Shown piece by piece: positions 34,087 to 54,423 of a DNA stretch of 54,733 nt. Below the pieces are notes generated by a model. The model was given only the letters and a program-made list of their open reading frames with translations. It had not been told where the DNA came from and searched no databases. Position numbers and translations under genes: made by a program. Where the stretch lies: positions 1 through 54,733 of the forward strand of contig JAJZTW010000021.1 of NCBI GenBank assembly GCA_021847345.1, written 5' to 3'. Positions within the stretch are counted from its first letter, which is position 1; every line of letters begins with the position of its first letter. The stretch comes from Pseudomonadota bacterium (GTDB lineage Bacteria > Pseudomonadota > Gammaproteobacteria > Burkholderiales > Burkholderiaceae_C).

Positions 34087-34166
34087 GCGCCCCCAGGGCC
34101 GGGCCTGGGGCCCGACCCGCCCCCCGTGGGGGTCGAGAAAACTTGGGGCGGCCCTGCGTTTTCTCG
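34084..34166 (+). repeat. Structured intergenic repeat, copy B (short form)
   Basis: Starting at the TGA stop of the amidotransferase gene, 34084-34104 match the outer ends of copies C, D and E. A C-rich/G-rich mini-palindrome follows, then a 9-bp stem CGAGAAAAC (34134-34142) with GTTTTCTCG (34158-34166) around a 15-nt loop. The loop is identical to copy A and differs by one base from copies C and D, while the stem differs by paired changes. It could terminate transcription, although no separate T-run follows. Confidence 0.85.
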
Positions 34167-34424
34167 TGAGCAACTGCCCGGTTCGCAGGCGTCAGGGCGT
34201 CAGGGCGCCAGGGCGTTAGGTTTTCGTGATTCGTCGGCTGCGCGTCGGGCTTCGGCGACAAAACCCCTATTCGTGGGGTGTTTTGCTCGACAAAAACGTT
34301 AAGATTTACTGCGCAACCTCTTGGATTTACGCAATATTTGCGCAAAGGCTGCGGCGAGGCGCCGTGACGGGCCGAGCCGGCGGCCCCTGCGTCGAGGTTC
34401 CCCGGACCCCGCCCTCGCCCCGCC
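34167..34424. other. Intergenic region upstream of the GGDEF gene
   Basis: Together with copy B this makes a 338-nt gap. It has a direct GTCAGGGC repetition near 34190-34206 and a hairpin from CAAAACCCC (34259-34267) to GTTTTG (34280-34285). An AT-rich stretch at 34285-34345, including the palindrome TTTGCGCAAA, is probably the promoter zone of the diguanylate cyclase gene. No gene is supported. Confidence 0.45.
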
Positions 34425-35483
34425 ATGCCAGCCAGCGCCCTGAGTACCCAGCACACCGTCGAGCAAGCCAAGGCCCTGGCGTTCCGGGCCGTCGACTTCC
34501 TGGTCGAGCACGACGTTCCGCCCATCCCGCTGAGCTACGGGGTGGCCTACGAATACCTCAGCGGCGGCAGCCCGGAGCTGTGCCGCACGCTGGACGAATA
34601 CCTGCACAGTGGACGCCAGATCGACGCGTTCCTGCTGCGCGACCTGCACGAGCGCCACCTCGCGGTGGACCGCTCGACCCCGCTGCGCGGCGTGGGCAAC
34701 GACCTGCAGCAACTCCTCGGCGACCTGACCCACGACATCGAGGAGGCCGGCCGGGGGGCCGAGGAGTTCGGGCAGGCGCTGGACAGCACGCTGGGGCACC
34801 TGGCGGGCGACCGCGACACCCAGTCCCTGCGCGACATCGCGTCTGGCATGCTGGTGGCCACGCAGCAGGCGCGGCAGCGCAACCATCACTTGCAGCAACG
34901 CCTGCAGATCACCCTGGCGGAAAGCGAGAAACTCAAGGTCGAGCTCGAGCGGCACCGGCGCGAGGCGCTGATCGATCCGCTCACCGGACTGTGGAACCGG
35001 CGCGCTCTCGATCATGAGCTCGACGAGCTCATGGCCGTCGAGCCGGATGCGCCACTGAGCTTGCTGATGCTGGACGTGGACCACTTCAAGCGCATCAACG
35101 ACACCCATGGCCACGCGCTGGGCGACGCCGTGTTGCGTCATGTCGCCGAGGCCATTCGCAAATGCCTGCGCAGCGAGGACCACGCGGTTCGCTACGGTGG
35201 CGAGGAGTTCCTCGTGCTGCTGCCGCGCACGCCGCTGCTCGAAGCCGCGCAGGTGGCCGAGAATATTCGTGCCCGTGTGGCTTCGCTGCGCCTGCGGCGT
35301 CGAAGCGACAACCTGGTGCTCGACCCCTTCACGGTGTCGCTGGGCGTGGCCAGCCGCAGACCGGGAGACACACGCGAAACCCTGCTGCGGCGCACCGACC
35401 ACGCCATGTACCGCTCCAAGGGCATGGGGCGCAATCGCGTCAGCCTCGACGTCGACCAGGGTCTGTCGCCAGGCCACGCCTGA
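34425..35483 (+). CDS. Diguanylate cyclase (GGDEF domain)
   Basis: The 352-aa soluble protein has an N-terminal helical region (residues 1-180) with no recognised sensor domain, a coiled-coil linker (LQQRLQITLAESEKLKVELE), then a GGDEF domain beginning DPLTGLWNRRALD. The active site is GGEEF (258-262), a functional variant. RSED five residues before it is an intact RxxD inhibitory site, so product feedback is expected. It makes c-di-GMP. It is the first of four c-di-GMP genes within 14 kb. Confidence 0.93.
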   Translation: MPASALSTQHTVEQAKALAFRAVDFLVEHDVPPIPLSYGVAYEYLSGGSPELCRTLDEYLHSGRQIDAFLLRDLHERHLAVDRSTPLRGVGNDLQQLLGDLTHDIEEAGRGAEEFGQALDSTLGHLAGDRDTQSLRDIASGMLVATQQARQRNHHLQQRLQITLAESEKLKVELERHRREALIDPLTGLWNRRALDHELDELMAVEPDAPLSLLMLDVDHFKRINDTHGHALGDAVLRHVAEAIRKCLRSEDHAVRYGGEEFLVLLPRTPLLEAAQVAENIRARVASLRLRRRSDNLVLDPFTVSLGVASRRPGDTRETLLRRTDHAMYRSKGMGRNRVSLDVDQGLSPGHA

Positions 35484-35513
35484 GGCCGCGACCGGCCGGG
35501 CGCGCGCGGCGGG

Positions 35514-37130
35514 TCAATGCGCGCCGGCGGCCTCCGCCGATGTGCTGCCCGGCGTGCCGGGACGCACCAGCCAGACCATCACGATCATTCCCAGGAACAG
35601 CCACGCGCTGAGCCGGAACATCTCGTCCACCGAAATGGTCGAGGCCTGCACGTCGATCAGGCGGTTGATCAGGCCCAGCGCCTGCTCGTGCGTCAGGCCA
35701 CCGGCCTGCAGCATGCGCAGCACGGCGGCCGACGGCGCGTGCCCGGCGGTGATGTGCATGGCGAGCTGCTCGTGGTGCAGCGTGGCGCGGTTGTCCCACA
35801 GCGTGGTGTAGATCGATGCCCCGAACGAGCCGGCGGTGATGCGCGCGAAATTCGACAGCCCGGCGGCCGAGGCCACTCGCGTGGGCGCCAGGCCACCGAG
35901 GATGATGGCCAGCAGCGGGATGAAGAAGGTCGCGGTGGCGATTCCCTGCACCAGCGTGGGCAGCGAGTACTGCCAGTAGGTGTCGCCGGCGGTGAAGCGC
36001 GAGCGCATCCAGAACACCAGCGCGAACACCAGGAAGGAAAACGAGGTCACCCAGCGCGTATCGATGCGGTGCGAGTAGCGCCCGACGAAGGGCATGAACA
36101 CGAGCGCGAACAGCCCGACCCAGGCCAGCACGCCGCCGGCCTCGGTGGCCGTGTAGCCGACGTACTCCTGCAGCCACAGCGGCAGCAGCACCAGCGAGCC
36201 GAAGTACATGCCGTAGGCCAGCGCCAGCATGACCGTGCCGAGGGTGAAGTTGGGCAGCGCGAACAGGGTCAGGTCGACCACCGGATGGGTGTCGTGCAGT
36301 TCCCAGATCAGGAACAGCACGAAGCCCACGACCGCGGCCACGGCGAGCGCGATGATGGTGGTGGAGCCGAACCAGTCGAGCTCCTGGCCCTTGTCGAGCA
36401 TGACCTGCAACGAGCCGACCCAGATCACCAGCAGCGCCAGCCCGGTCCAGTCGATGGGCAGCTTGCGCGTGGGGGTCTCGCGCTGGCGGTAGATGGCCAG
36501 CGTGATCAGGCTGCACACCACGCCGACCGGAACGTTGATGTAGAAGATCCAGGGCCAGGAGATGTTGTCGGTGATCCAGCCGCCGAGCAGCGGCCCGGCG
36601 ATCGGGGCCACCAGCGTGGTCATCGACCACATCGCCAGCGCCATGCCTGCCCGCTCGGTGCGGTAGCTCGACAGCAGCAGGGTCTGCGACAGCGGGATCA
36701 TCGGCCCCGCCGACGCGCCCTGCAACACGCGGAACAGGATCAGCACGCTCAGGGTCGGCGCCTGGCCGCACAGGAACGAGAACAGCGTGAACAGCGCGAT
36801 GCTGGCCAGGAACGTGCGCACGGCGCCGAAGCGCTGGGTGAGAAAGCCGGTCAGCGGCACCGCGATGGCGTTGGCCACGCCGAAGGAGGTGATCACCCAC
36901 GTGCCCTGGGACGCGCTGACCCCCATGTCGCCGGCGATCGACGGGATCGACACGTTGGCGATCGAGGTGTCGAGCACGTTCATGAACGTGGCCAGGCTCA
37001 GCGCGATGGTGCCCACGACCAGCGCGCCGCCCTGCAGCGGGCGAAGGTGTGCGGGAGTCGTTCCGGCAGCAGCGGGGCGAGGGGTGGCGGGCTCGCCCGC
37101 GGGGGCGTCGGCCGGAGGGTTCGGGTTCAT
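35514..37130 (-). CDS. DHA2-family multidrug efflux MFS transporter (EmrB-like)
   Basis: The 538-aa permease has 14 predicted membrane segments. ATFMNVLDTSIANVSIPSIA in the first helix is the DHA2 motif (LDxTIVNVALP type). GASAGPMIPLSQTLLL and the motif-C stretch near helix 5 (APIAGPLLGGWITDNISWPW) are clear. Such pumps usually work with an EmrA-type adaptor and an outer-membrane channel, but neither gene is next to it. It is divergent from a MarR regulator over 48 nt that contain a likely operator, so drug- or phenol-induced derepression is expected. Confidence 0.92.
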   Translation of the reverse strand: MNPNPPADAPAGEPATPRPAAAGTTPAHLRPLQGGALVVGTIALSLATFMNVLDTSIANVSIPSIAGDMGVSASQGTWVITSFGVANAIAVPLTGFLTQRFGAVRTFLASIALFTLFSFLCGQAPTLSVLILFRVLQGASAGPMIPLSQTLLLSSYRTERAGMALAMWSMTTLVAPIAGPLLGGWITDNISWPWIFYINVPVGVVCSLITLAIYRQRETPTRKLPIDWTGLALLVIWVGSLQVMLDKGQELDWFGSTTIIALAVAAVVGFVLFLIWELHDTHPVVDLTLFALPNFTLGTVMLALAYGMYFGSLVLLPLWLQEYVGYTATEAGGVLAWVGLFALVFMPFVGRYSHRIDTRWVTSFSFLVFALVFWMRSRFTAGDTYWQYSLPTLVQGIATATFFIPLLAIILGGLAPTRVASAAGLSNFARITAGSFGASIYTTLWDNRATLHHEQLAMHITAGHAPSAAVLRMLQAGGLTHEQALGLINRLIDVQASTISVDEMFRLSAWLFLGMIVMVWLVRPGTPGSTSAEAAGAH

Positions 37131-37152
37131 CGGGATGCGGGGGTATTTATAT

Positions 37153-37173
37153 CAAATGTTATCATCACGTTTG
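37153..37173. promoter_or_regulatory. Probable MarR operator
   Basis: CAAATGTTAT (37153-37162) and ATCACGTTTG (37164-37173) form an imperfect palindrome, 8 of 10 positions paired, centred on 37163. On the minus strand TATAAA, a likely -10 box of the efflux gene, lies at its edge. A MarR dimer here could repress both divergent genes. Confidence 0.5.
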
Positions 37174-37178
37174 TTTCT

Positions 37179-37697
37179 ATGCCGTCGGGCCCCGGCCTGG
37201 CGCGCTCCGCACAGCCGCCGATGGACCGCCAGCGCAATTTCGGATTCCTGCTCGCCGAGCTCAACCGGCGCTACGTGCGCCTGTTCGAGCAGCTTGCGCA
37301 GGGCACCGGGCTGACCCTGACCACCTGCCGCGTGCTCGCCTACCTGGAGCGTCACCAGGGCATCAGCCAGACGCGCCTGGCCGAGCTCGCGGCCATCGAG
37401 CCCATGTCCCTGGTGCGCGTGCTCGACCGACTGCAGGCCGAGGGCCTGGTGCGGCGGCGCCGCGACCTCGCCGACCGGCGCGCGCACCGCCTCGAGCTGT
37501 GCGCGCCCGCACAACCGGTGCTGGAGCGAATCCGTGAGCTGTCGCGGCGCGCGCGCGAGCAGGTCTTCGCCGGCGTCGAGCCGGCCGAGCGCGACGCCTT
37601 CCTGGACCTGCTCGAGAAACTGAGCGACAACCTGGACGCCAGCCGCCTGTCGGAGCCGGGCGGACGCGCCCGCGGCGAAGCCGGCGCGGGCCGCTGA
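37179..37697 (+). CDS. MarR-family transcriptional regulator
   Basis: The 172-aa protein has the MarR winged helix: TCRVLAYLERHQGISQTRLA, ELAAIEPMSLVRVLDRL (recognition helix) and LVRRRRDLADRRAHR (wing with the DRR signature). N- and C-terminal helices form the dimer. Starts at 37179 and 37221 are both possible; 37221 gives 158 aa, nearer the family norm. The C-terminal Gly/Arg tail is low-complexity. It is divergent from the EmrB-like pump, its likely target, as in EmrR systems. Confidence 0.9.
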   Translation: MPSGPGLARSAQPPMDRQRNFGFLLAELNRRYVRLFEQLAQGTGLTLTTCRVLAYLERHQGISQTRLAELAAIEPMSLVRVLDRLQAEGLVRRRRDLADRRAHRLELCAPAQPVLERIRELSRRAREQVFAGVEPAERDAFLDLLEKLSDNLDASRLSEPGGRARGEAGAGR

Positions 37698-37820
37698 CCG
37701 GGGCCGCGCGGCGTGGCGTAGCATGGCAAGCGCGCCGCGCCCCGGCTGCGCATGCGCCTGCTGGCCGGGCGCGAACCGACGCAGCCGCGTTGCCCGTTTT
37801 GGCGCCTTGTCGCATTTGCC

Positions 37821-38693
37821 ATGAACCTGCTCCATCGCCGTTTCGCTCGGCTGTGTGCCGTACTGGCCGCATGCCTCGTCTGCAGCCTTGCGGTCGCCGC
37901 GGCCCCCGCCGCGCAGGCAGGAACGGTGTATACCGTCGCCGTGGTGCCGCAGTTCGCTCCCGTGCGCGTGTACGAGGATTGGCGCCCGTTTCTCGATGCC
38001 CTGCAGAAGGCCACCGGGCTCAGGTTTCACCTGGTGACCTACTCGAGCATCCCGAAGTTCGAAGCTGCGTATGTCAAGGGCACGCCTGATTTCGCCTTCA
38101 TGAATCCCTACGACTTGGTCGTCGCGCATCGCGCGCGCGGCTACCGGCCGCTGGTGCGTGACACCAGGCCCCTGAGCGGAATCCTGGTCGTGCGTGCCGA
38201 CTCGGACATCCACGAGCTGGCGCAGCTGGCCGGCAAGCAGGTGGGCTTCCCGGCGCCGAACGCCTTCGGTGCGTCGCTGTACATGCGCGCGCTGCTGCAA
38301 CGCCAGGGCGTGCGCATCGACCCGGTCTATCTCGGCACGCACCAGAACGTGTACCGCGCGGTGGCGCGCGGCGACGTCGTGGCCGGCGGCGCAGTGCACG
38401 CCACGCTGATGCGCGAGCCGGTCGCGCTGCGCCAGTTGCTGCGCGTGATCTATGTCACGCCGAGCACCGCGCCCCACGCGCTGGCCGTCAACCCGCGCGT
38501 ACCCGACGCGGTGGCCAGGCGGGTGCAGCAAGCCATCCTCGGCATGCCCGCTCGCGCCGCGGACGCCACGTTGTTGCTGCACGTGCAGATGCCGCATCCG
38601 GTGCAGGCGAACTACCGGCGCGACTACGCACCGCTGGAGCGCCTGCACCTGGAGCGCTTCTATGTGCGCCCGCAAGTCGGCGACGCACGCTGA
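37821..38693 (+). CDS. PhnD-like phosphate/phosphonate substrate-binding protein
   Basis: The 290-aa periplasmic protein has a signal peptide (LCAVLAACLVCSLAVAAAPA), then TVAVVPQFAPVRVYEDWRPF, FHLVTYSSIPKFEAAYVKG and DFAFMNPYDLVVA, the PhnD/PtxB-type binding fold. LAGKQVGFPAPNAFGASLYM is the conserved hinge segment. No ABC permease or ATPase is adjacent. Instead a hybrid histidine kinase starts 12 nt downstream, so this protein is probably the ligand-binding half of a sensor. Ligand is unknown; phosphonate-type or other oxyanions are possible. Confidence 0.87.
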   Translation: MNLLHRRFARLCAVLAACLVCSLAVAAAPAAQAGTVYTVAVVPQFAPVRVYEDWRPFLDALQKATGLRFHLVTYSSIPKFEAAYVKGTPDFAFMNPYDLVVAHRARGYRPLVRDTRPLSGILVVRADSDIHELAQLAGKQVGFPAPNAFGASLYMRALLQRQGVRIDPVYLGTHQNVYRAVARGDVVAGGAVHATLMREPVALRQLLRVIYVTPSTAPHALAVNPRVPDAVARRVQQAILGMPARAADATLLLHVQMPHPVQANYRRDYAPLERLHLERFYVRPQVGDAR

Positions 38694-38705
38694 GCCGGGC
38701 GATCG

Positions 38706-41786
<3,081 letters not shown>

Positions 41787-41789
<3 letters not shown>

Positions 41790-41811
41790 GCGCCCCCAGG
41801 GCCGGGCTGCG
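41787..41811 (+). repeat. Partial copy E of the structured repeat
   Basis: Twenty-five bases from the TGA stop of the histidine kinase gene match the outer end of copies C and D. The rest of the element, including the covarying hairpin, is missing. It is a truncated copy between two convergent genes. Confidence 0.7.
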
Positions 41812-41840
41812 GTGAGGGCCCTCGAGGCCGGCCTGCGGGG

Positions 41841-43148
41841 TCAGGCTCGGGCCTGGTCGGGCCGTTCGCTGTGGCCGCCGTCGGAAGCCGTCGGAACGAG
41901 TTCAGGCACGCGCTCGCGCCAGAGCTCCTGCCAGCGCGGCAACTGCTCCCCGGCCAGCGGGCGCGAGATGAAATAGCCTTGCGCCAGGTGCACCCCGTGG
42001 GAGCGACAGAAATCCCAGTCGAGGCGATCCTCGATGCCCTCGGCGACCACTCGCATGCCCAGGGCCTGGCCGAGTCGGGTGCACGAGTCGAACAGCACCG
42101 TGCCGCGCAGCGACGCGTGCGCGGCGTGGGTGAAGTCGCGATCGATCTTGATCTCGTCGAACACCGCGTCGCGCAGCTTGGACAAGGTGGAGTAGCCGCT
42201 GCCGAAGTCGTCGATGGACAACGCAAAGCGCCGCAGTCGCAGCCGGCTCATGATCTCGACCAGCAGCCGGGGATCGTCGCCCAGTTCGCTTTCCGTGACC
42301 TCGATCACCAGCTCCTCGGGTTGCGTGCCATGGTGCCGCGCGCGCTCGCTGACCAGGTCGGCGAAGCCCAGGTCCCCCAGGTCTCGCGCCGACGCATTCA
42401 CCGACATCGACAGCGCCAGGCCCTGGGCGCGCCATCGTGCCTGCTGTGCGAGGGAGGTCTCGAGCACGCTGCGCGTGAGCTCGCTGATCGCACCACAGGA
42501 TTCCGCCAGGGGCACGAAGCGATCCGGCGTGATCAGCCCGTGCGCCGCATGCCGCCAGCGCGCGAGGGCCTCGACGCCGACCAGGCGGCCGTCGCGCAGG
42601 TCCACCTTCGGCTGGTACATGCAGCCGATGTCGCCGCGCGCCAGCGCCTGGCGCAGCGCCTGTTCATCGGGCTGCCAGCCGGCGTCACCGCCGGCGCTCG
42701 TCGCACGCGCATCGGCGCAGCCCCAGGGCAGCGCCTGGAGCTGCTCGAGGCGCGGCGGCTTGGTCAGCGTGCCGGGCACGTTCAGTCCGTGCGAGCGCGC
42801 CAACTGCATCACCGACTCCAGCACTTCGGGCGCCTCGCCGCTGAACGGAACGACGCAGCCCGCGTATCCGATGTCGGCCAGGTGGCGAAAAAACGCCATG
42901 CCGTCGATTCCGGGCATGTTCAGGTCCACCACGATGCCGTCGAATTCGCGCGCGTGCTCACGCAGTCGCTCCAGCGCGGCTGCCGGGTCCGTCTCGCCGA
43001 CGGCTTCGAAGGCGCCGATGCGGCCCAGCATCAAGCCCAGCAGCGTGGCCATGAACGCATCGTCGTCGACGATCAGCACCCGCGACGCCTGCGTCGCCTC
43101 GCCCGCGCTTGCGGCGCGCTCGGGCGATGGCGGGGTGGTCGTGGGCAT
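41841..43148 (-). CDS. Response regulator with EAL phosphodiesterase domain
   Basis: The 435-aa protein has a receiver domain (VLIVDDDAF; phospho-acceptor Asp75 in VVDLNMPGIDG; Ser in VVPFSGE; Lys in LTKPP), then an EAL domain. The EAL motif is GVEALARW (about 192). Other catalytic pieces are all present: SVNASARDL, VIEVTESEL, SIDDFGSGYS, EIKIDRDF, EGIED and QGYFISRPL. It should hydrolyse c-di-GMP when phosphorylated. The gene is convergent with the hybrid kinase, whose HPt domain could phosphorylate it. The upstream region 43149-43303 probably holds its promoter. Confidence 0.94.
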   Translation of the reverse strand: MPTTTPPSPERAASAGEATQASRVLIVDDDAFMATLLGLMLGRIGAFEAVGETDPAAALERLREHAREFDGIVVDLNMPGIDGMAFFRHLADIGYAGCVVPFSGEAPEVLESVMQLARSHGLNVPGTLTKPPRLEQLQALPWGCADARATSAGGDAGWQPDEQALRQALARGDIGCMYQPKVDLRDGRLVGVEALARWRHAAHGLITPDRFVPLAESCGAISELTRSVLETSLAQQARWRAQGLALSMSVNASARDLGDLGFADLVSERARHHGTQPEELVIEVTESELGDDPRLLVEIMSRLRLRRFALSIDDFGSGYSTLSKLRDAVFDEIKIDRDFTHAAHASLRGTVLFDSCTRLGQALGMRVVAEGIEDRLDWDFCRSHGVHLAQGYFISRPLAGEQLPRWQELWRERVPELVPTASDGGHSERPDQARA

Positions 43149-43303
43149 GGGCGGCGCGAGCGGGACATCGTTCGCGCATTGAGCTCGCGCGAAGATGGCT
43201 TTTCGACGAAGCTTACGCTAACGCGGGATTGCCGGGTTTGGTCAAGCGCCAGGGAAGTTCGTCGTCCAGTGCACTATTGCACAGGTTTGCGGAATTTTTC
43301 GGC

Positions 43304-43466
43304 TCTCAAGCAATCGCCGGGCCGCCCCAAGATTGCTTGACCCCCACGGGGGATGAGGCCGGACCAGCTGCTGTGCCTGCGCACAGCAGCGCGCCGGCCG
43401 AATCCGAGCAGCCTGCAAGCTGCGAGGTGGAACGGGCTGGGCGCAGCCCGGCCCTGGGGGCGCTCA
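43304..43466 (-). repeat. Structured intergenic repeat, copy D (long form)
   Basis: This is the second long copy, nearly identical to 1-162 about 43 kb away. On the minus strand it begins TGAGCGCCCCC and ends with the 10-bp stem (43331-43340 with 43306-43315) around a 15-nt loop (43316-43330). Unlike copy C it is not directly at a gene end: repeat G and about 110 nt of other sequence separate it from the stop of the GGDEF/EAL gene. Confidence 0.88.
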
Positions 43467-43629
43467 GAAGGTGTGAATGAATCGGCCGTGGCCGAGGGGC
43501 CGACCAGGGGCGCTGCCATGAAGGCGCAAACCGCAGTCGTAGCACCTGCTACGGCGAGGATTTGCAACCCACAGGGCGGCGTCCAGGGGCGGTCCAGCGG
43601 GCATGGGGGATTCGTTCACACCTTCTCAG
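43463..43629. repeat. 21-nt imperfect inverted repeat bracketing a hairpin
   Basis: Positions 43463-43483 and 43609-43629 are reverse complements at 19 of 21 bases. The right arm overlaps the stop codon of the GGDEF/EAL gene. Between them lies an imperfect hairpin (GCAAA 43526-43530, GTAGC 43539-43543, GCTAC 43548-43552, TTTGC 43561-43565) with a 4-nt loop. The arrangement resembles a small non-autonomous mobile element or a large RNA hairpin, but no target duplication was found. Confidence 0.6.
43467..43513 (-). repeat. Intergenic repeat G (inverse copy of 21460-21506)
   Basis: About 45 of 47 bases match the reverse complement of 21460-21506, including the TCGGCC..GGCCGA palindrome with one change. 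It abuts copy D. The two repeats share the GCGCCCC start, so they may be modules of one repeat family. Confidence 0.7.
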
Positions 43630-46600: not shown

Positions 46601-48461
46601 TCGCCTCCTGCGTGCAGCCGGCCAGCGCGTAGGCTTGCCAGGGCTGGATGAGCACCGAATCGGGGTTGGTCTCGATGGCGCGCACCGCGTCGCGCCAGGT
46701 GCGCGACATCGCGTCCGTTCCGTCGTGCCGGACCTGCAGCGGCAGCGGCTCGAGGGTTTCGCGGGCATGGCCGGCGGCTGCCACGATGCGCAGGCGCCCC
46801 TGTTCGTCGGGCTGGCCGATCCATGCCGCGGCGAACAGGCCGCCTTCGAGCAGGCGCGTGCACGCGGTCTCCAGCAGCTCGCTCTCGCTGCGCGACGCGA
46901 TCAGCACGTCGATCTGCGAGAACACCGTGCGCATGAGCTCACCCTGGCGTTCATGGGCCCGCAACGCGTCCTGTTGCGCGGCCACCAGGTCGACGCGCTC
47001 CAGTCCGCGCCCGATGTATTCGCCCATGTCGCCCAGCAGGTTGGCGAACTCCGGGTCGAAGTCCAGCGCCTCGTCCCAGTACAGCGACAGCACCGCGTCG
47101 AGCCGGCCATGACGCCGGATGGGCAGCGCGGCGCACGCGTGCAGCGCATGGGCCTCGGCATGCGCGCTCCAGGGCCGTCCGGCGCGCGCGAGATCGTCGT
47201 GGAACTGCGCGCTGGCGCTGCGCCACACCGCGCCGAAAGGGCCCGGTGCGTCGGCCGGCGCCCCGAGCTCGCCGCGCGTGCCGCGCAGGTAATCGGTGAC
47301 TCCGGCGCTGGCGAGCACCTGCTCGCGCTGCGCGGCGTCGGCGCGCCCGATCCAGGCCAGGCGAACTCCGCACAGGTCCACCGCGGCCTGGCAGATGCCT
47401 TGCAGCAGGTCGTCCTCGTTGGCGGCGGCGGCGATCAATTCGTGGGTCCTGGCGCGAAACGACTGCATGCGCGACAGGCGCTGCAGCGTGCGCAGCGCCT
47501 GCGTGCTCGCACGCTGCAGCCGACGCGCGCGGCGCTCGCTCGCGGCAAGCAGCCCGGCGCCAAGCACCAGCGCCAACGCCAGCAACGCGACGTAGGGCAG
47601 CAGCGCGCGACCCCACGCGACGAGCAGGGTGCGTTGCGGCACGGCCGCGATGATCACATAGGGCAGGCCGTCCACGCGCACCCAGGCCCCCAGCGCTCGC
47701 TGCGCCACGTCGCCCACGGTGCCGTGGAACGAGCCGCTACCCGAGCCCAGCAGCGAGCGCAGCGGAAGATCCAGGCGTTGCGGGCGCCCGAACGGCGTCA
47801 TGCTCACCGGGTAGCCTGCCTGCGGCAGGCCGTCGACATCGCGCACGACGGTCAGGCTGGCGCTGGGGTAATGGGCCAGCAGGGCGCGCAGCGCCGCAGA
47901 CAGCTGGTGCGGGTGCGTCACCACCAGCCAGCGCCCGCCGCCGATGCGCAGCATCTCCCCGCTCAGCCAGCTTCCGGTGCCCGTGGGGCCGGGCACAGGG
48001 GGCAGCGCGCAGCGCGCGGCGCCGCCCGCGCAGCCCGACCAGGCCTGGCGCGTGCTCGGCGCCAGCGACGCATCGGTCGCCGGATAGGGCGGCGCATCGC
48101 GTGCCGCCGCCAGCACATGCCCGGAGTCGTCGAGCAGCAGCAGGTTGGTGTTGCCCGGCCACAGTGCCAGCGCATGCCGCAGCTCCGGAGCCGGGTCGGC
48201 CCTTCCGTCCAGGTCGGCCGCGATCTGGCGCAGGTGGGACACTCGCGTGTCGAGTTCGTTGCGCATGTCCTGCGCGTACACGTCAGCCCCGGCGCGCAGC
48301 GTGACGAGCGCGCGCCGGCGAGTCGCCGTCCACTGCTGCCAGGCGAAACCGGCGGCCGCCACGACCAGCACCAGCACGAACACGAAGGCTGCCCTGGCGC
48401 GCACGGGCTGCGGGTCCATCACGGGCGTGCGGGAGGGTGTTCGGGCTGGCGGCTGGGGCAT
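43626..48461 (-). CDS. Multidomain c-di-GMP protein: sensor-GAF-GAF-GGDEF-globin-GAF-EAL-CZB
   Basis: The 1611-aa protein (ATG at 48461; an in-frame GTG at 48542 adds 27) has membrane helices at about 24-44 and 281-306 around a periplasmic sensor. GAF domains follow at about 340-480 and 510-650, then GGDEF (motif 763-767, intact RxxD site RESD before it). Residues about 850-1000 resemble protoglobin sensors, with LGRVHAMIGV giving a candidate haem ligand His950. Another GAF-like domain precedes an EAL domain whose signature reads EVL (1225); other catalytic pieces (LNLPPSV, LELLETHED, MDDLGSGYS, VKIDQH, EGLES, QGYALAHP) are kept. The C-terminus resembles a CZB zinc-binding domain, with SHQQYRDTL, ACLLGRW (Cys1507) and RHLHTEFHRQ. 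GGDEF and EAL assignments are firm; globin and CZB are pattern-based. Confidence 0.88.
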   Translation of the reverse strand: MPQPPARTPSRTPVMDPQPVRARAAFVFVLVLVVAAAGFAWQQWTATRRRALVTLRAGADVYAQDMRNELDTRVSHLRQIAADLDGRADPAPELRHALALWPGNTNLLLLDDSGHVLAAARDAPPYPATDASLAPSTRQAWSGCAGGAARCALPPVPGPTGTGSWLSGEMLRIGGGRWLVVTHPHQLSAALRALLAHYPSASLTVVRDVDGLPQAGYPVSMTPFGRPQRLDLPLRSLLGSGSGSFHGTVGDVAQRALGAWVRVDGLPYVIIAAVPQRTLLVAWGRALLPYVALLALALVLGAGLLAASERRARRLQRASTQALRTLQRLSRMQSFRARTHELIAAAANEDDLLQGICQAAVDLCGVRLAWIGRADAAQREQVLASAGVTDYLRGTRGELGAPADAPGPFGAVWRSASAQFHDDLARAGRPWSAHAEAHALHACAALPIRRHGRLDAVLSLYWDEALDFDPEFANLLGDMGEYIGRGLERVDLVAAQQDALRAHERQGELMRTVFSQIDVLIASRSESELLETACTRLLEGGLFAAAWIGQPDEQGRLRIVAAAGHARETLEPLPLQVRHDGTDAMSRTWRDAVRAIETNPDSVLIQPWQAYALAGCTQEAMTLPLRRSGRLWAMLVLVANDSADLDAIVQDTLVRTADLISQALTEIDLKQMLQARESEQAHLARHDALTGLANRLALEQHLPHAMARARRGGHQLAIGVLDLDDFKPVNDTYGHAAGDRLLQQLGARLQAQLRESDLLARLGGDEFVLVLDELDAAHPRQVLATVLARLHRAVEEPFELGPGVLADVGMSMGLALYPEHGEEPDTLLRQADGALYATKAAKGRRQRWWLLSGEQVDDAQEDELDPHGEAAAELLDKVQAELVAVDEEFVESYWRQLAPDSANARILAMLTEPEVQGLKQHQQRHLRRLLQPRLQRHEQELAALRLGRVHAMIGVDGAASMAALSQYGAALQRATQRLPLRLDARVRLQTLLQQRVALDLQAAQRGALEVQHQRQAHLAAMELRLGAWEQSGQLPRHVVAHLGELPGVCGVACGRPDADNRYVLEFGFGEAQAYLQALRDAGLDPDFRRGALERPGATQRAWSSGVIATDANESAMDGYGPIASRFGVRSAAAIPLLDRHGHVHQVITLLGRHPGQFEAAGMRMWLESAQHHLGPAFQRALGGPTQHPIAATRRSRLHDLLYGGGLRLHVQPLVNLLTGQPDEVEVLARLQDGDTVLHPGAFLEAFGNHELRILFRKGLELTLHWLRAWDAQGLRLGASLNLPPSVLMDPECPQWIAQALEHSRIDASRLHLELLETHEDQFDSQRRDEAIASLSRLGVRLIMDDLGSGYSSLRRMRSLPFHTVKIDQHIVQQAQEEPVKTISFVGALVRMAQGLNMQVTMEGLESPELVEMALALGVERGQGYALAHPMPAEKLAAWLQTWHWELDAGSPDTALGRQALLYSRDIAPLDWQRIIVSHQQYRDTLMRSLRGEGSALQWRVVCRDDACLLGRWMRRHADTIWPATRTAFQRARHLHTEFHRQAGELLREAQEADRREQVLASLGAGALDRASDRLVRALHQLSWSMGAAGDERGDAEEAANEADPARRHVQA

Positions 48462-48629
48462 CGCGGCTTCGTACGGATCACGGCCCCGGCGTGGCGACAA
48501 CGGGCCGATGCAGCTCCGGAGCCGTGCTCCGGGCGCATACACCCTCGCATTGTGACAGTGCTTACGCTCGCGCGGAGCAAAAGCCGACCCCGGGTTTCGG
48601 GGGGATTCGCGCGGCCCGCCCGGGGGCCG

Positions 48630-49415
48630 TCAATAGAACACGAAGGTCGCCTGGGTCGGGCTGTTGATCGTGTTGTAGGCGCTGGTGTAGTCGGTCGACA
48701 GCGTGCCCAGCGCGCCGGTGTTCCAGGTCAGCAGGTTCGCCGCGTTGGGGTCGTCGACCACGCTCTGCCCACTCACCAGGTACTGCTCGACGCCGCGCAG
48801 CACGAGGTCCTGCGGGTCGCCGGAGTTCGGCGCCGACGTGATCTGCGTGGCGCCGAGCTGGAACTCGCCGGCGACGCGCGAGGCCGCCAGCGCGTAGTTG
48901 CTCATGCTCAATCCACCCGCCATGGCCTGGGCCATCGACGTGGCGATCGTGGTCAACGGGGTGACCAGCACGTTCACGGTGCCTCCGCCGCCGATGAAGG
49001 CCACCGCCTGCAGCGCGGCGTTGGTCGCGCCGAGCGGGTTCAGGGCCACCGTCGTTCCCGATGCGCGATTCGGGTAGCTTCCCCCGGTGATCTGCACCAG
49101 CACCGGGCCGTAGAAGTTCGGCAGCGCCTGCGAGAACTGACCCTGGGAGTCCGTGCTGATGCACGACGTCGTGAGCAGGGTCCCGGTATTCGCCGGCGGG
49201 CTCACCCCCGTGTTGAGCGGGTTGCCCTGGCCGTTCGCGATCGCGTACAGACAGACGTTGTAGGAACCGGTGACCGGCGCCGTGGCGTCCATCAGCACCT
49301 GCCCGTCCAGCGTGGACCCCGAGTACTTGTTGCTGGTGCCGCCGCCGCAGGCGGCGAGCAAGAGGCTCAGGCTCAGTGCGGCAAGGGTCGCACCGCGGCG
49401 CAATGGGCAAGACAT
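48630..49415 (-). CDS. Putative lipoprotein of unknown function
   Basis: The 261-aa protein has a lipoprotein signal: basic start, hydrophobic core and lipobox LLLAACGGG with Cys23, so it should be lipid-anchored. The mature part starts with a Gly/Ser linker, then beta-rich sequence (YNVCLYAIANGQ, GPVLVQITGGSYPN) and a helical region with NVLVTPLTTIATSMAQAM. The last pattern is seen in carboxypeptidase-regulatory-like surface lipoproteins of Burkholderiales. I do not recognise a specific function. A GGAG ribosome site precedes the ATG at 49415. It lies 26 nt after the smg stop on the same strand. The C-terminus ends in QATFVFY, an aromatic end. Confidence 0.75.
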   Translation of the reverse strand: MSCPLRRGATLAALSLSLLLAACGGGTSNKYSGSTLDGQVLMDATAPVTGSYNVCLYAIANGQGNPLNTGVSPPANTGTLLTTSCISTDSQGQFSQALPNFYGPVLVQITGGSYPNRASGTTVALNPLGATNAALQAVAFIGGGGTVNVLVTPLTTIATSMAQAMAGGLSMSNYALAASRVAGEFQLGATQITSAPNSGDPQDLVLRGVEQYLVSGQSVVDDPNAANLLTWNTGALGTLSTDYTSAYNTINSPTQATFVFY

Positions 49416-49441
49416 GGGTGACAGCTCCGGGCTGGGGGGCT

Positions 49442-49900
49442 TCAATGCACGACGCGGTCGGTGGCTTCGACGAACAGTTCGTCGAGGATCAACGCATCCG
49501 GCTCCTCGTCCAGGCGCCAGAACACCATGAGCACGATGGTCTTGAGCTGCTCCACCGGCAGCTGCCTGATTCCGGTGGCTACCGCGCGTTCGATGACCAG
49601 TTCGCGCAGATGGGGCTTGATCGTTCCCGCCGATTCGAGGAAGTTCAGGTACCCGACAGCATCCACGCCGAGGCATTCGAGTTCGCCGGCCTCGTACAGA
49701 CGGATGGTTCCGTTCGTCGGTGCGTTGGCCAGGCGACTGTCGGCGACGGCGAGGTCCAGGCCGTGCAGCCAGTCCAGCGCATCGCTGATTTCCTCGGTCT
49801 CGAAACCTGCCGCGCTGAGCTTGCGCGACAACTGTCCCGGCTCCGGGCAAGCCTCGGGGTGCCAGTAGGTCTCGTAGACGTACATCAGAATATCGAACAT
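49442..49900 (-). CDS. smg: Smg family protein (DUF494)
   Basis: The 152-aa protein begins MFDILMYVYETYWHPEACP and has LSRKLSAAGFETEEISDALDWL and ELVIERAVATGIRQLPVEQLK, all typical of Smg/DUF494. Its function is unknown; the gene is classically found next to dprA, as here. The start at 49900 gives the family's usual MFDxLxYxxExY opening; an upstream ATG adds six residues. It follows dprA on the same strand after 64 nt. Confidence 0.94.
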   Translation of the reverse strand: MFDILMYVYETYWHPEACPEPGQLSRKLSAAGFETEEISDALDWLHGLDLAVADSRLANAPTNGTIRLYEAGELECLGVDAVGYLNFLESAGTIKPHLRELVIERAVATGIRQLPVEQLKTIVLMVFWRLDEEPDALILDELFVEATDRVVH

Positions 49901-49964
49901 GGTGGGCATTCTATGCATAAGCGCCCCTCGCGGCCCTGGTGTGGATTTCCCGTCGCGGCGGGGT

Positions 49965-51119
49965 TCAACCCCGCCCGATGCGCTGCAGGCGCCCGCCGGG
50001 AAGGCGTTGCACCCGACCGTGCAGCTCCAGCTCGAGCAGTTGTTCGAGCAGCCAGGGCGTCGGGCGCCCGCTGCGCGCCTGCAGCTGGTCGAAGCCGATG
50101 GCGTCGAAGCCCATGCAGTCGAGCACTTGCCGAGCCGCCGAACCCGGCGGCGGGCCTTCGGCGCGCTGCTGCGGCGCCGCGTCGCCGCCGGCCGCCGGGG
50201 CCTGCCAGCCGAGCTCGTCGAACACGTCGTCGATGCTCTCGACCAGGCGCGCGCCGTCGCGCAGCAGGCGATGACATCCTCGCGCCGTGGGGTTGTGGAT
50301 GGAGCCCGGCAACGCGAACACCTCGCGGCCCTGCTCGGCCGCCAGGCGCGCGGTGATCAGCGAGCCGGAGCGAAGCGCTGCCTCGGTGACCAGCACGCCT
50401 GCCGACAAGCCGCTGATGATGCGATTGCGCCGCGGGAAGTGGGCGGGCAACGCGGCCTGGCCCAGCGCGAATTCCGACACCAGCAAGCCATCGCGTGCCA
50501 CTTCGCGTGCCAGGCCCCGATTCGCCGCCGGGTACACGCGATCGCAGCCGGTTCCCAGCACCGCCACGGTCGAGCCGCCCTGCGCGCCGGCGTCGAGCGC
50601 GCCGCGGTGCGCCTGCGCGTCGACGCCGCCGGCCAGGCCCGACACGACGGTCACCCCCGCCCGCGCCAGCGAGCCGGCGAACTCCCGCGAGTCGCGCGCG
50701 CCCTGTGCGCTGGGGTTGCGCGTGCCGACCACGGCCAGCATGCGCGGCCTGCCCAGCAGCGCCGGGTCGCCGCGGGCCCACAGCAGCGGGGGCGGGTCGG
50801 GGATCTCGAGCAGCTGACGTGGATAGTCAGGGTCGGCCAGGGTCAGCAGACGATGTCCCGGTTCGGCGAGCCAGTCGACGGCTCGCGCCAGCAGCTCCCG
50901 CAGCGCCGGAGGCGGCTCGCCCAGCAGTGCGTCGATGGCCGCTGGCGCGAGCAGGCCCCGCAGCCTGGTGGCGTCACATTGCAGGACCTGCTGCGGCAGG
51001 CCGAAGCTTCGCAGCAGCCTGCGCAGCGCGACCGGGCCGATCCCGGGACTGTAGACCAGGCGCAGCCATGCGCGCGTGTCGGCGTCGTCGCCTGGATCGC
51101 CCGGTGGCTCGGGATTCAC
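49965..51119 (-). CDS. dprA: DNA-processing protein DprA
   Basis: The 384-aa protein protects incoming single-stranded DNA and loads RecA during natural transformation. The N-terminal SAM-like region has SPGIGPVALRRLLRSFG. The Rossmann core has VVGTRNPSAQGARDSREFA, VVSGLAGGVDAQAHRGAL, GTGCDRVYPAAN and FPRRNRIISGLS. A C-terminal DML1-like winged helix follows an Ala/Gly/Pro linker. Length is normal. It sits between the LysM gene and smg, all minus strand, a conserved betaproteobacterial arrangement. No other competence genes are in the window. Confidence 0.96.
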   Translation of the reverse strand: MNPEPPGDPGDDADTRAWLRLVYSPGIGPVALRRLLRSFGLPQQVLQCDATRLRGLLAPAAIDALLGEPPPALRELLARAVDWLAEPGHRLLTLADPDYPRQLLEIPDPPPLLWARGDPALLGRPRMLAVVGTRNPSAQGARDSREFAGSLARAGVTVVSGLAGGVDAQAHRGALDAGAQGGSTVAVLGTGCDRVYPAANRGLAREVARDGLLVSEFALGQAALPAHFPRRNRIISGLSAGVLVTEAALRSGSLITARLAAEQGREVFALPGSIHNPTARGCHRLLRDGARLVESIDDVFDELGWQAPAAGGDAAPQQRAEGPPPGSAARQVLDCMGFDAIGFDQLQARSGRPTPWLLEQLLELELHGRVQRLPGGRLQRIGRG

Positions 51120-51141
51120 GCCGGCGCGCCCGGTCAGCGGG

Positions 51142-52296
51142 TCAGGGTTGGGTGACGGTGTCGGGGACTTCCACCTCGCTGCTGCCGCTGAGCACCAGCC
51201 CGAAGCTGACGTGGTGGAAGGTGCGGAACACCATCAGCAGGCCGTCGCGCCGGGAAGGCAGCACGATGCGCTGGTCGTTCGGCGTGGTCGTGTCGACCAC
51301 CTCGCGCGCCAGCTTGCGGATCGCCAGCACGTCGCCACGGCGCAGCCCGTCGGCGCTGCCCAGGTTGATGGCGACGACGCTGCCGTTGCCGGCCATCTGC
51401 ATGCCGTCGTAGATGGAAATGATGCTTCCGCGGACCGGATGCGCAGGCGCCTTGGGCGTGAAATTCAGATACTGGCGCGGGGGAATCGCGATCAGCCTGT
51501 CCCCGACGACCATCTCGCGGTGCATGGTCAACGGTTCCACGGTCGATACGGCGTCGGGCCCCTGGGGCCCGTGCACGACCTGCACGGTCCCCACGTAGTC
51601 CGATTCGTAGGCGATGATCTTGTGCGTGGCGGGGTCGCGCAGCGGCTTCGCCGGGCGGTAGACGTCGAAGCGGGTGTGGCCGTCGACGTCGCCGCGCACG
51701 TAGGCCACGCTGGCCTGGGTGAGCATGACATGGCCAGGCGCCAGCGCGACGATTCGCGGCGACTTGGCGAGCTGTGACGGCTCGACGATCAGCGGGCGTG
51801 TCAGGAAGGGGTCGATGAGCGCCGGATCGAGCGTGGGGATGCCGCTCGGCGGCAGCGCCTTGTACTGCACGCCCGGTTCGACGCGCACCGTCGGGATCTC
51901 GCCCTGTCCCTGCAGGCTCAGCATGGCGCGTCCGTTCGCGATGGTCAGCACCAGGACCTGGCCGGGGAAGATCCAGTGGGGGTTGCGGATGCGCTGCAGG
52001 TTCATGCCCCACAGATCCGGCCAGTTCCACGGCCGCTTGAGGTAGACGCCGGCGATGTGCCACAGCGTGTCGCCCTTGCGAACCTCGTAGCGCGACGGAG
52101 CCCCCGCGGCCAGCTCGCTGACCGGGACTCCGCGCTCGGCAGTCGACTGGGCACGCTCGCGCTGCTGCGCCGGCACCGGGTAGTCGGGCAGGCCGTTGAG
52201 CGGCGGCGCTCCGGTGGCCCAAGCCTGCGCAGCGGCCGTGCCCAACCAGAACACCAATCCGAGCGTGCTGGCGTGGCCAAAGAACTTGCGTTGCAT
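51142..52296 (-). CDS. LysM-domain exported protein
   Basis: The 384-aa protein has a signal peptide (STLGLVFWLGTAAAQAWA) and one LysM domain (YEVRKGDTLWHIAGVYLKRP, ending WIFPGQVLVL) that should bind peptidoglycan. The remaining 260 residues have VEPGVQYKALPPSGIPTLDP and repeated beta segments; this long tail is conserved with dprA-linked LysM proteins of Burkholderiales. It lies 22 nt upstream of dprA and is divergent from def across 392 nt. I chose the ATG at 52296 because it gives a clean signal peptide after GGGGG. Function in envelope maintenance is likely but unproven. Confidence 0.9.
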   Translation of the reverse strand: MQRKFFGHASTLGLVFWLGTAAAQAWATGAPPLNGLPDYPVPAQQRERAQSTAERGVPVSELAAGAPSRYEVRKGDTLWHIAGVYLKRPWNWPDLWGMNLQRIRNPHWIFPGQVLVLTIANGRAMLSLQGQGEIPTVRVEPGVQYKALPPSGIPTLDPALIDPFLTRPLIVEPSQLAKSPRIVALAPGHVMLTQASVAYVRGDVDGHTRFDVYRPAKPLRDPATHKIIAYESDYVGTVQVVHGPQGPDAVSTVEPLTMHREMVVGDRLIAIPPRQYLNFTPKAPAHPVRGSIISIYDGMQMAGNGSVVAINLGSADGLRRGDVLAIRKLAREVVDTTTPNDQRIVLPSRRDGLLMVFRTFHHVSFGLVLSGSSEVEVPDTVTQP

Positions 52297-52688
52297 GAAA
52301 GGGCCCCCAAGAAAGACAATACAGGTTGAAAGACGACAATCCGCTCGGCGCCGTGGCGGATGGCGGATTTTGGCATCTGCCGCAGCCCGGCGCGAGCGTA
52401 CCCGTCCGGCCTGGGGATTTTCGCGGCATCGTGCCGGCGTGAGCCGGCGACGCGCCTTGGCGTGAGCGCCCTTGCGCGGTCGCCGTGCAGCCCCCATATA
52501 TATGCAGGGTAAGCCTCGTCGCTGCGTGGTCAATCCCTCGGCAGGCAAAACCTCGAATGCTTGTTACATTGTCTCCATAAATCCGCGAACGTCGCAATCA
52601 AATTCCCGATTCGAACCTGCGCGAAGTTGCATGAATGCCGCGTGCCAGGCCGATTTGCCGCGGGGCATTTGACGCTTCGGAGTTCTCC
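52297..52688. other. Divergent intergenic region between LysM gene and def
   Basis: This 392-nt region must hold promoters for both directions. It has a 10-bp palindrome CATATATATG near 52496-52505 and a locally AT-rich stretch (52550-52610). GATTCGAACC near 52608 looks like a tRNA T-arm, but no cloverleaf surrounds it. No gene is supported, and no promoter can be assigned with confidence. Confidence 0.45.
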
Positions 52689-53201
52689 ATGGCCCTACTC
52701 GATATCCTTCAATATCCCGACCCTCGCCTGCACAAGGTGGCCAAGCCGGTGGCGGCGGTCGACGAGCGCGTGCGCACCATCGTGGCGGACATGTTCGAGA
52801 CCATGTACGCCGCCAAGGGCGTGGGCCTGGCCGCCACGCAGGTGGACATCCACGAGCGAATCATCGTGGTCGACACGTCCGAGCAGCGCGACCAGCCGAT
52901 GGTGCTGATCAACCCGGAGATCGTGCGGCGAAGCACCGACTGCAAGGAATGGGAGGAAGGCTGTCTGTCGTTGCCCGGCATCTACGACAAGGTCACGCGA
53001 CCCGACACGATCGTCGTTCGCGCGCTCGACGCGCGCGGCGAGGCCTTCGAGATCGAAGCCGACGGCTTGCTTTCGGTCTGCGTGCAGCACGAAATGGACC
53101 ACCTCGAAGGCAAGGTCTTCGTGGACCACCTGTCGGCCTTGAAGCGCAACCGCATCAAGTCGCGCATGCGCAAGCGCCAGCGCGAAGTGCAGCCGGCCTG
53201 A
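52689..53201 (+). CDS. def: Peptide deformylase
   Basis: The 170-aa metalloenzyme removes the formyl group from nascent proteins. All three motifs are present: [18 protein letters not shown] (metal Cys) and QHEMDHLEG (two metal His and the catalytic Glu). Length is normal for the type I enzyme. The ATG at 52689 gives the usual MALLDIL opening. It is followed 24 nt later by fmt in the standard def-fmt order. Confidence 0.98.
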
Positions 53202-53225
53202 ACTCCTGCCCAGGGGTGCGCAACC

Positions 53226-54248
53226 TTGAATCCGAGCCTCGACACCTCCGCCGCTGCGCCGCTGCGCGTGGCGTACGCGGGAACCCCAGAGTTCGCCGCG
53301 GTGGCGCTGGGCGCGCTGCTGCAGGCCGGGTACGACGTGCCGTTGGTGCTGACTCAGCCGGACCGCCCGGCCGGCCGCGGCCTGCGCGAACAGCCCAGCG
53401 CCGTCAAGCAGCTGGCCCTGGGGCACGGCCTTGCGCTGGCCCAGCCTTTCGGGCTGCGCCTGGACGGACGCTTCGCCGACGATGCCCGGTGCGCGCGCGC
53501 GGCGCTGGAGGCGGCCGCGCCGGACGTGCTGGTGGTGGCGGCCTACGGCTTGATCCTGCCGCAATGGGTGCTCGACCTGCCGCGCATGGGTTGCCTGAAC
53601 ATCCACGCCTCGCTGCTGCCGCGCTGGCGCGGCGCGGCGCCCATCCAGCGTGCGCTGGAGGCCGGGGACGCGATCACCGGCGTGAGCATCATGCGCATGG
53701 ACGCCGGGCTGGATACCGGACCGGTGTACCGAATGGAAGAGCTGGCGATCCGCGCCGACGACACCTCGCGGACCCTGCACGACCGCCTGGCCGGTCTGGG
53801 CGCCGATCTGTTGCTGCGCGTGCTGCAGGACCTGCGGGACGACATCGCCGAGCCCACGGCCCAGCCCAATGACGGGGTCACCTACGCGCAAAAGATCGAC
53901 AAATCCGAGACCTGGCTGGATTTTTCCCGACCGGCCGTCGAGCTCGAACGGCGCGTGCGCGCATTCGCACCCCACCCCGGCACGCGAACCCGCCTGGACG
54001 CACTGCAACTCAAGGTGCACGCCGCGCATCTGGGCAGCTCGGGCTCCCGAGGCGAGCCGGGCTGCGTGCTGCGCGCCGATGCCGCCGGCATCGAGGTGGC
54101 GTGCGGCGACGGCACGCTGGTACTGACCCGCGTGCAACGCGCTGGCGGCGCCCACGCCGTGGACGCCGGCGCCTTGCTGCGCGGCCTGCCGATCCAGCCA
54201 GGCCAGAGCTTCGCCAGCGGACCGCCCGACGCCCCCGCGGGCGCTTGA
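53226..54248 (+). CDS. fmt: Methionyl-tRNA formyltransferase
   Basis: The 340-aa enzyme formylates initiator Met-tRNA. The N-terminal domain has RVAYAGTPEFAAVAL, then NIHASLLPRWRGAAPIQRAL with the catalytic Asn-His and the SLLPxxRG motif, and MRMDAGLDTGPVY with the catalytic Asp. The C-terminal OB-like domain follows. The start appears to be a TTG at 53226, nine bases after AGGGG; no better ATG lies near. It is co-transcribed with def. Repeat copy A separates it from htpX. Confidence 0.97.
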   Translation: MNPSLDTSAAAPLRVAYAGTPEFAAVALGALLQAGYDVPLVLTQPDRPAGRGLREQPSAVKQLALGHGLALAQPFGLRLDGRFADDARCARAALEAAAPDVLVVAAYGLILPQWVLDLPRMGCLNIHASLLPRWRGAAPIQRALEAGDAITGVSIMRMDAGLDTGPVYRMEELAIRADDTSRTLHDRLAGLGADLLLRVLQDLRDDIAEPTAQPNDGVTYAQKIDKSETWLDFSRPAVELERRVRAFAPHPGTRTRLDALQLKVHAAHLGSSGSRGEPGCVLRADAAGIEVACGDGTLVLTRVQRAGGAHAVDAGALLRGLPIQPGQSFASGPPDAPAGA

Positions 54249-54289
54249 TTCGCCTGCTTGCCCACCGGCAGGCGGGCGTGTCCGCGGCG

Positions 54290-54346
54290 CCCGGCCCGCC
54301 CCCCGTGGGGGTCGAGAAAACTTGGGGCGGCCCTGCGTTTTCTCGA
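54290..54346 (+). repeat. Structured intergenic repeat, copy A (short form)
   Basis: It shares the C-rich/G-rich mini-palindrome and the entire stem-loop with copy B. The stem is TCGAGAAAAC (54312-54321) with GTTTTCTCGA (54337-54346), 10 bp, around a 15-nt loop. It lies 40 nt after fmt, on the same strand, before htpX. Unlike copies B, C and E it lacks the TGAGCGCCCCC start at the stop codon. Confidence 0.85.
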
Positions 54347-54423
54347 GAGACCTTGCGCCTCGATGGGTTACCATTGTTTCAAAAGGTAATTTCTGGAATG
54401 GCGTGCTGCCGTTCCCCGGATCG

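What the first reader, a model, noticed from the sequence alone, without database searches (positions are those of the whole stretch)
34134..54346. Intergenic repeat with a constant 15-nt loop and stems showing three compensatory base-pair changes
Seen directly: copies at 3-37, 34134-34166, 43306-43340 and 54312-54346 share one 15-nt loop (one variable base), closed by 9-10 bp stems. The stem of copies C/D differs from that of A/B at three positions, and each change is matched on the opposite arm (A-T to G-C, C-G to A-T, T-A to A-T). Such covariation implies selection on a folded structure, RNA or single-stranded DNA. I know no named family with this loop. It could be a terminator, a 3'-end stabiliser, a REP-like mobile element or a protein-binding RNA.
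Basis: seen in the sequence. Interest (0 to 1): 0.75.

Follow-up and report, generated by a model that had tools for sequence, protein, structure and literature searches.

The report
Mobile hairpin repeat inserted at stop codons
The four hairpins are copies of a short mobile DNA repeat that often inserts right at the TGA stop codons of genes; it keeps one fixed hairpin tip on stems of almost any sequence, is probably a family already named but not understood (BRE), and the enzyme that moves it is unknown.

Summary
The four hairpins are pieces of an ~81-nt repeat unit (an ~160-nt form also exists). The window's genome holds 118 exact copies of the 12-nt core, against 1 for the reversed control. 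Stem covariation is real: 147 different stems from Burkholderiales and relatives, all with the apex C-TTGGGGCGGCCCNGC-G, have 82% of cells paired against 50% shuffled. The unit is mobile: of 18 comparable sites in a ~95%-identical congener, 14 lack it. Seven junctions are readable, six at TGA (five TGAG) and one at CGAG. Of 50 clusters with a defined left end and an upstream gene, 29 sit flush on the gene's stop codon, which stays intact. The target therefore explains most of the co-orientation with upstream genes, so an RNA role is not required. No Y1 (IS200/RAYT) or Y2 (IS91) transposase was found in this 93%-complete genome. Size, tandem arrangement and host range fit the 'BRE' repeat (PMC3110155), whose letters I could not compare. 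Best reading: a non-autonomous REP-like/BRE element whose folded hairpin is recognised through its apex by an unidentified recombinase.

The parts
34084..34170 (+). Copy A, complete short unit: TGA stop of predicted gene 33295-34086, then hairpin 1, hairpin 2 (CCCCCGTGGGGG), hairpin 3, right-end TGAG
   Evidence: empty in congener G015
34134..34166 (+). Hairpin 3 of copy A: variable stem, constant apex at 34142-34158
54286..54349 (+). Copy D: hairpins 2 and 3, left end decayed; hairpin 3 at 54313-54345; begins 38 nt after the stop of predicted gene 53226-54248
   Evidence: absent in G015, flanks there diverged
43303..43466 (-). Long-form copy: hairpin 1 from 43461 down, about 80 nt of extra sequence, hairpin 2, hairpin 3 at 43307-43339
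   Evidence: absent in G015
1..162 (-). Long-form copy at the contig end, starting at the TGA stop of predicted gene 160-567 (-); hairpin 3 at 4-36
41787..41811 (+). Left-end fragment of a unit, on the TGA stop of predicted gene 38706-41789
   Evidence: G015 has TGAGTC and an intact gene here

Best explanation
It is a non-autonomous mobile repeat of the REP/BRE kind. A unit of about 81 nt (or about 160 nt) made of three GC-rich hairpins inserts at TGA(G). The GA(G) ends up at both ends, so the exact cut cannot be placed within it. A new copy that lands on a gene's TGA stop leaves the stop intact and points the same way as the gene, so such insertions are tolerated and accumulate. New copies can also insert at the same site beside old ones, giving head-to-tail arrays. 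The third hairpin carries a 17-nt apex that hardly changes on a stem of almost free sequence. I infer that a trans-acting recombinase, not identified here, reads the apex on a folded single strand of DNA and needs only that the stem be paired. Shown: the unit, target, mobility, covariation and patchy copy number. Inferred: single-strand recognition, the enzyme, and selection through mobility rather than through RNA.
For: Copy number: 118 in this genome; 0 to 53 in 27 congeners; in another genus (g47 of f30) from 0 to 137. Empty sites: of 77 clusters, 19 could be compared with G015 (1.32 Mb held); one is a chance core match without the unit; of 18, 14 lack the unit in G015 and 4 hold a copy or remnant. 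Readable targets: T|GAG at L034, L047, L008, L391 and copy A, T|GAC at L070, C|GAG at L038 (at L008 and copy A the right side has small differences). At L055 a long copy with a variant core looks inserted at T|GAG directly 5' of an older copy. At copy A, 24 of 25 congeners with the gene end found show no core (places partly extrapolated), and at copy D none of 27, so the insertions are the derived state. 29 of 50 clusters are flush on the stop, against 36% expected from TGAG sites outside coding (binomial 0.0012) or 25% from TGA sites (6.5e-7). Structure: 147 distinct stems, covariation score 0.785 against 0.195 shuffled and at most 0.311 slid. Of own-genome units found through their left end, 58 of 65 with paired arms have exactly CTTGGGGCGGCCCNGCG and 7 have one or two changes.
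Against: No enzyme is found: Y1 and Y2 transposase domains are absent from this genome, and no autonomous copy was seen. No G.T over A.C excess marks one strand in this genus (own 5 against 7, congeners 9 against 8; a wider set has 28 against 11). In 6 of the 14 empty sites (D, L007, L014, L040, L064, L068) the flanks have diverged or been rearranged at the junction, and at the window's 43303 copy only the right side is readable. TGAG itself lies within six letters of GCCCCC in only 31 of 50 clusters, partly because some read TGAGAG. Outside this genus co-orientation is weak (27 against 17, and 17 against 16) and T^GA insertion was not tested. Stop codons are hit more often than TGAG availability predicts, so selection or another preference adds to the target.
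Confidence: 0.6

Rival explanations
1. The element is kept because it works in RNA: transcribed from the 3' end of the upstream gene, its hairpins terminate transcription or shield the mRNA from 3' exonucleases, perhaps with a protein bound to the apex; mobility is a side effect.
For: 58 of 68 clusters with an upstream gene are co-oriented with it (two chance core matches included; 77 of 93 copies). Stable RNA fold, -47.9 kcal/mol. Copy A scores as terminator-like at its apex plus T's (4 such sites in 451 bases, 0.6 expected). A BRE-bearing region of B. pertussis gives an ~80-nt transcript, bprJ1 (PMC3110155, passages read).
Against: The bias is concentrated in insertions on the stop codon, where the target dictates it; away from it 14 are co-oriented and 7 are not. 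In the wider set the bias is weak. The RNA fold is not unusual for its composition (z -1.47; as DNA z -2.41). Runs of T after the apex come with stems of the GTTTTCTC kind, not GATTGCTTG (by eye). No G.U excess in this genus.
Confidence: 0.25
2. An ordinary REP/IS200-type element moved by a RAYT or TnpA Y1 transposase encoded elsewhere or lost.
For: Hairpin units, tetranucleotide-like target, no terminal inverted repeat, tandem clusters. Y1 genes, several of RAYT size, exist in 14 of 18 genomes of other groups tested, including 8 of 10 with the repeat.
Against: Y1_Tnp absent in this genome (93% complete) and in G026 (99% complete, 53 copies); within the genus Y1-bearing genomes have fewer copies (p 0.03 in the wrong direction). 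Y1 is also present in 6 of 8 zero-copy genomes of the other groups, once below the cut-off. No recognisable hairpin beside the 44 Y1 loci (12 weak matches against 9 in the reversed control). GTAG or CTAC within a few bases of the ends in 1 of 65 short units, CGTC or GACG in 0.
Confidence: 0.12
3. The matched stem changes come from mutation, not selection: template switching between the two arms of a quasi-palindrome copies changes from one arm to the other.
For: Would produce perfect arms with symmetric G.T and A.C intermediates, as seen in this genus.
Against: It does not explain why the apex stays constant while the stem changes at every pair, nor the empty sites. Not tested directly.
Confidence: 0.08

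Closest known systems
BRE, Beta-proteobacterial repeat element (Hot et al. 2011, PMC3110155)
   Same: BRE: 75-91 bp, GC 63.7-78.9%, tandem copies with no or few nucleotides between, mostly intergenic but some inside genes, overlapping gene ends by a few bases, variable copy number, in Bordetella, Polaromonas, Delftia, Acidovorax, Rhodoferax (passages). Here: spacing mostly 78-85 nt, GC 72.7-80.0% in 65 short units; the core occurs in Bordetella genomosp. 4 (L164), Polaromonas, Delftia, Rhodoferax, Acidovorax and Achromobacter
   Different: Sequence identity not compared (alignment is in a figure/supplement). The passages I read describe no constant apex, no covarying stem, no TGA target and no empty sites.
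Bor repeats of Bordetella (PMC1590033; Bor-1, PMC2267715)
   Same: Intergenic stem-loop repeats of the same order of bacteria; Bor-1 models are 93 and 117 nt (passages)
   Different: Consensus only in a figure; identity untested
GTAG- and CGTC-tagged REPs (PMC3733652)
   Same: Short palindromic units, many copies, clusters (passages)
   Different: No GTAG or CGTC tag (1 and 0 of 65 units); constant apex and free stem; no Y1 transposase here
MITEs (recalled)
   Same: Short, non-autonomous, clean empty sites
   Different: No terminal inverted repeats; repeat of only GA(G)
Rickettsia palindromic elements (recalled)
   Same: Two units lie inside reading frames here that look like kdpB and kdpD
   Different: Mostly at stop codons and intergenic

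Membership tests
REP of the RAYT (GTAG) type | RAYT/Y1 transposase in the genome | tested here: not met
   0 hits in this genome; 18 of 28 genomes of the genus, this one included, without; draft 93% complete
REP of the RAYT (GTAG) type | Transposase gene flanked by the repeat | tested here: not met
   44 Y1 loci, 12 weak matches against 9 in the reversed control; none of the 22 genus loci has the exact core
REP of the RAYT (GTAG) type | GTAG (or CGTC) tag at one end | tested here: not met
   GTAG/CTAC near an end in 1 of 65 short own-genome units, CGTC/GACG in 0 of 65
IS91/Y2 rolling-circle element | Y2_Tnp gene in the genome | tested here: not met
   Absent in own genome and, this one included, in 20 of 28
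MITE | Terminal inverted repeats | tested here: not met
   Left end GAGNGCCCCC and right end ...CTCGTGAG / CTTGAGAG are not complementary (read by eye)
MITE | Target duplication at clean empty sites | tested here: inconclusive
   GA(G) at both ends; duplication and terminal homology cannot be told apart
BRE | Length 75-91, tandem, GC-rich, Betaproteobacterial range | tested here: met
   Of 30 tandem spacings 26 are 78-83 nt, 2 are 84-85, 2 are 161-162; GC mean 76% in 65 short units; Burkholderiales range; BRE figures from PMC3110155
BRE | Sequence identity to published BRE copies | not testable with these tools
   Letters only in figure and supplement
Rfam RNA family | Covariance-model match above gathering score | tested here: not met
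   0 hits in the window; 10 further loci gave one tRNA only
Intrinsic terminator | GC hairpin followed by a T-run in all copies | tested here: not met
   Copy A scores (one region scanned), but GATTGCTTG-type copies have no T-run (by eye)

The most novel reading that the evidence does not exclude
A new kind of single-strand DNA mobility: a conserved 17-nt hairpin tip, shared across Burkholderiales, is recognised by an enzyme that is neither a Y1 nor a Y2 HUH transposase. It drops the element at TGA stop codons, a safe site that also fixes the element's direction in the 3' UTR.
Probability: 0.25. Interest if true: 0.75.

Novelty: new variant of a known kind. Interest (0 to 1): 0.5.

Why it matters
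How palindromic repeats without a known transposase spread is an open question, raised for CGTC REPs in PMC3733652 (passages). Here is an abundant family with recent, polarised insertions, a readable target and a fixed recognition tip that could serve as bait, so the mobilising factor can be sought directly. It also shows how a target sequence alone can produce a strong '3' UTR' orientation bias that looks like RNA function.

Tried and rejected
RAYT/IS200: rejected as the obvious partner. IS91/Y2: rejected for this genome. Autonomous copy: left ends without a listed core turned out to be contig ends, truncations, variant apices or intact copies beyond the 100 places that one search listed; hairpin pairs 0.6-5 kb apart occur in 11 loci, of which I looked at 5 (L107, L140, L177, L199, L380), where the genes between look ordinary by eye. 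Pseudoknot between apex GGGGCGG and upstream CCGCCCC in the short form: seen by eye, absent in the long form, not pursued. Inverted ~390-nt composites (L031, L048, L053) as REPINs: seen, not resolved. My first gene finder picked antisense ORFs and was retrained with amino-acid frequencies. Literature: searches returned no paper; 20, 25, 26, 27, 68, 70, 75, 88 were seen as listings; passages were read in PMC3733652, PMC2817692, PMC2267715, PMC1590033 and PMC3110155. In those searches and passages I found no description of the constant apex or the TGA target; the held library lacks most subscription journals. Not done: covariance model, protein structure prediction, Pfam scans of neighbours, viral or metagenome scans, lagging-strand test. 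The host species was not identified.

Full report
Observation. Two of the four lie on the minus strand. Within the window this is one contrast between two stem types, because the copies of each type are near-identical. The 12-nt core has 118 exact matches in the 3.66-Mb draft genome against 1 for the reversed pattern. That call listed 100 places; these, the window and left ends found later were read, so some of the 118 were not examined one by one.

Anatomy. In element orientation the short unit reads GAG-N-GCCCCC.., a first hairpin, a hairpin of the CCCCC-NN-GGGGG kind, then the variable-stem hairpin with the constant apex, and ends near GAG. The long form has about 80 extra nt between the first two hairpins. 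Of 74 clusters, 13 had no definable left end, 10 belong to a third subfamily and 1 had no upstream gene. In the remaining 50 the four letters before GCCCCC are GAGN in 46 and AGAG in one. Of 30 tandem spacings 15 are 81 nt and 8 are 83 nt. The third subfamily forms inverted pairs about 210 nt apart.

Covariation. In 75 unique stems from 80 of the 119 loci, each of pairs 2-8 shows all four Watson-Crick types, while the closing C-G pair is kept in 69 of 75. A set of 147 distinct stems, chosen for the exact apex CTTGGGGCGGCCCNGCG (so the closing pair is fixed by choice), gives 82.4% paired cells (50.0% shuffled), 489 cells changed on both sides (175.8 shuffled) and score 0.785 (0.195 shuffled; slid controls at most 0.311). 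Two measures do not exceed the shuffles because they are saturated: pairs with a double change (8) and further pair types (37 against 38.2). The few single hits outside Proteobacteria or without a stem (such as L102, L112, L153, L154) are probably chance. Because the apex was a criterion, I also anchored own-genome units on their left end (94 left ends): of 82 non-identical units, 65 have at least 7 of 8 paired arms around a 17-nt apex, 58 of these 65 with the exact apex and 7 with one or two changes; the other 17 (long, cut or decayed forms; not broken down) were not scored. Most of those loci had been fetched through the core, so this control is partial. In this genus G.T and A.C mismatches are balanced and do not say which strand folds.

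Mobility. The congener G015 (about 95% identical) was fetched in stretches totalling 1.32 Mb. Of 77 clusters 19 could be compared; one (L073) is a chance core match. Of the remaining 18, 14 lack the unit in G015; L055 (two against one), L066 (three against two), L031 (a related composite) and L065 (a left-end remnant) are shared in part. The junction is readable at L034, L047, L070, L391, L008 and copy A (target TGA, followed by G in five and C in one) and at L038 (CGAG). At D, L007, L014, L040, L064 and L068 the flanks have diverged or been rearranged, and at the window's 43303 copy only the right side is readable. Copy A shows no core in 24 of 25 congeners in which the gene end was found (places partly extrapolated); the exception, G013, has a relative with a variant apex at about the same stop. 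Copy D shows none in 27 of 27. A second repeat of about 50 nt at window 21457-21507 is likewise absent from G015 and sits on a TGA.

Orientation. Of 68 clusters with an upstream gene 58 are co-oriented. Of the 50 with a defined left end, 29 are flush on the stop; the other 21 split 14 to 7. Outside coding there are 41 free TGAG sites at stops and 73 elsewhere, counted in 49 stretches most of which were fetched for the element, so flush insertions exceed availability modestly (58% against 36%). Target plus purifying selection explain most of the bias. In other genera the bias is weak, 27 to 17 and 17 to 16 (80 of 119 loci). Gene calls come from a home-made codon model, not from a standard annotator.

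Trans factor. Y1_Tnp: none here, 10 of 28 in the genus, with fewer copies where present (Mann-Whitney 0.033). Y2_Tnp: 8 of 28, no association. In other groups Y1 is present in 8 of 10 repeat-bearing and 6 of 8 zero-copy genomes. No hairpins flank the Y1 loci above control (12 against 9). An enzyme in the missing 7% of the draft cannot be excluded.

Distribution and name. 46 of 399 genomes sampled across the order have the 17-nt motif, with 1 to 137 copies; the reversed control has 3 matches in all. Named carriers include Hydrogenophaga, Variovorax, Polaromonas, Rhodoferax, Achromobacter and Bordetella. This and the unit's size fit BRE (PMC3110155: abstract and passages), described as having features of mobile elements and needing further work before any function could be suggested. 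Letters could not be compared.

Function. I put selection through mobility first (0.6) and an RNA 3'-end role second (0.25). Both could hold at once.

Noticed in passing
window 21457-21507 (+): A different repeat of about 50 nt (TGAGCGCCCCTGGTCGGCC...CCACCTTCC) on the TGA stop of predicted gene 20716-21459, absent in G015, whose left end resembles the main unit; a second copy lies next to the 43303 unit.
   Followed up: partly
L380 (own contig C39, 22600-27200): Units with unusual stems and slightly changed apices lie inside reading frames that look by eye like kdpB and kdpD, without breaking them.
   Followed up: partly
window 41787-41826: A left-end fragment marks the edge of a deletion: G015 keeps an intact gene of about 2.5 kb here that looks like a hybrid histidine kinase.
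   Followed up: partly
L031, L048, L053: Composites of about 390 nt with two different inverted hairpin ends and an inner ATAGCCGCCTGCGGCGGCCC inverted repeat; in L031 and L053 between convergent predicted genes.
   Followed up: no
L085, L104, L128, L120: The 3' arm of the stem is GGAGG just before an ATG or GTG, so it could double as a ribosome-binding site (by eye).
   Followed up: no
window 1-37 and other contig ends of G000 (L381, L383, L384, L390): Several draft contigs end inside long-form copies; the repeat seems to break the assembly, so the copy count is a lower bound.
   Followed up: no
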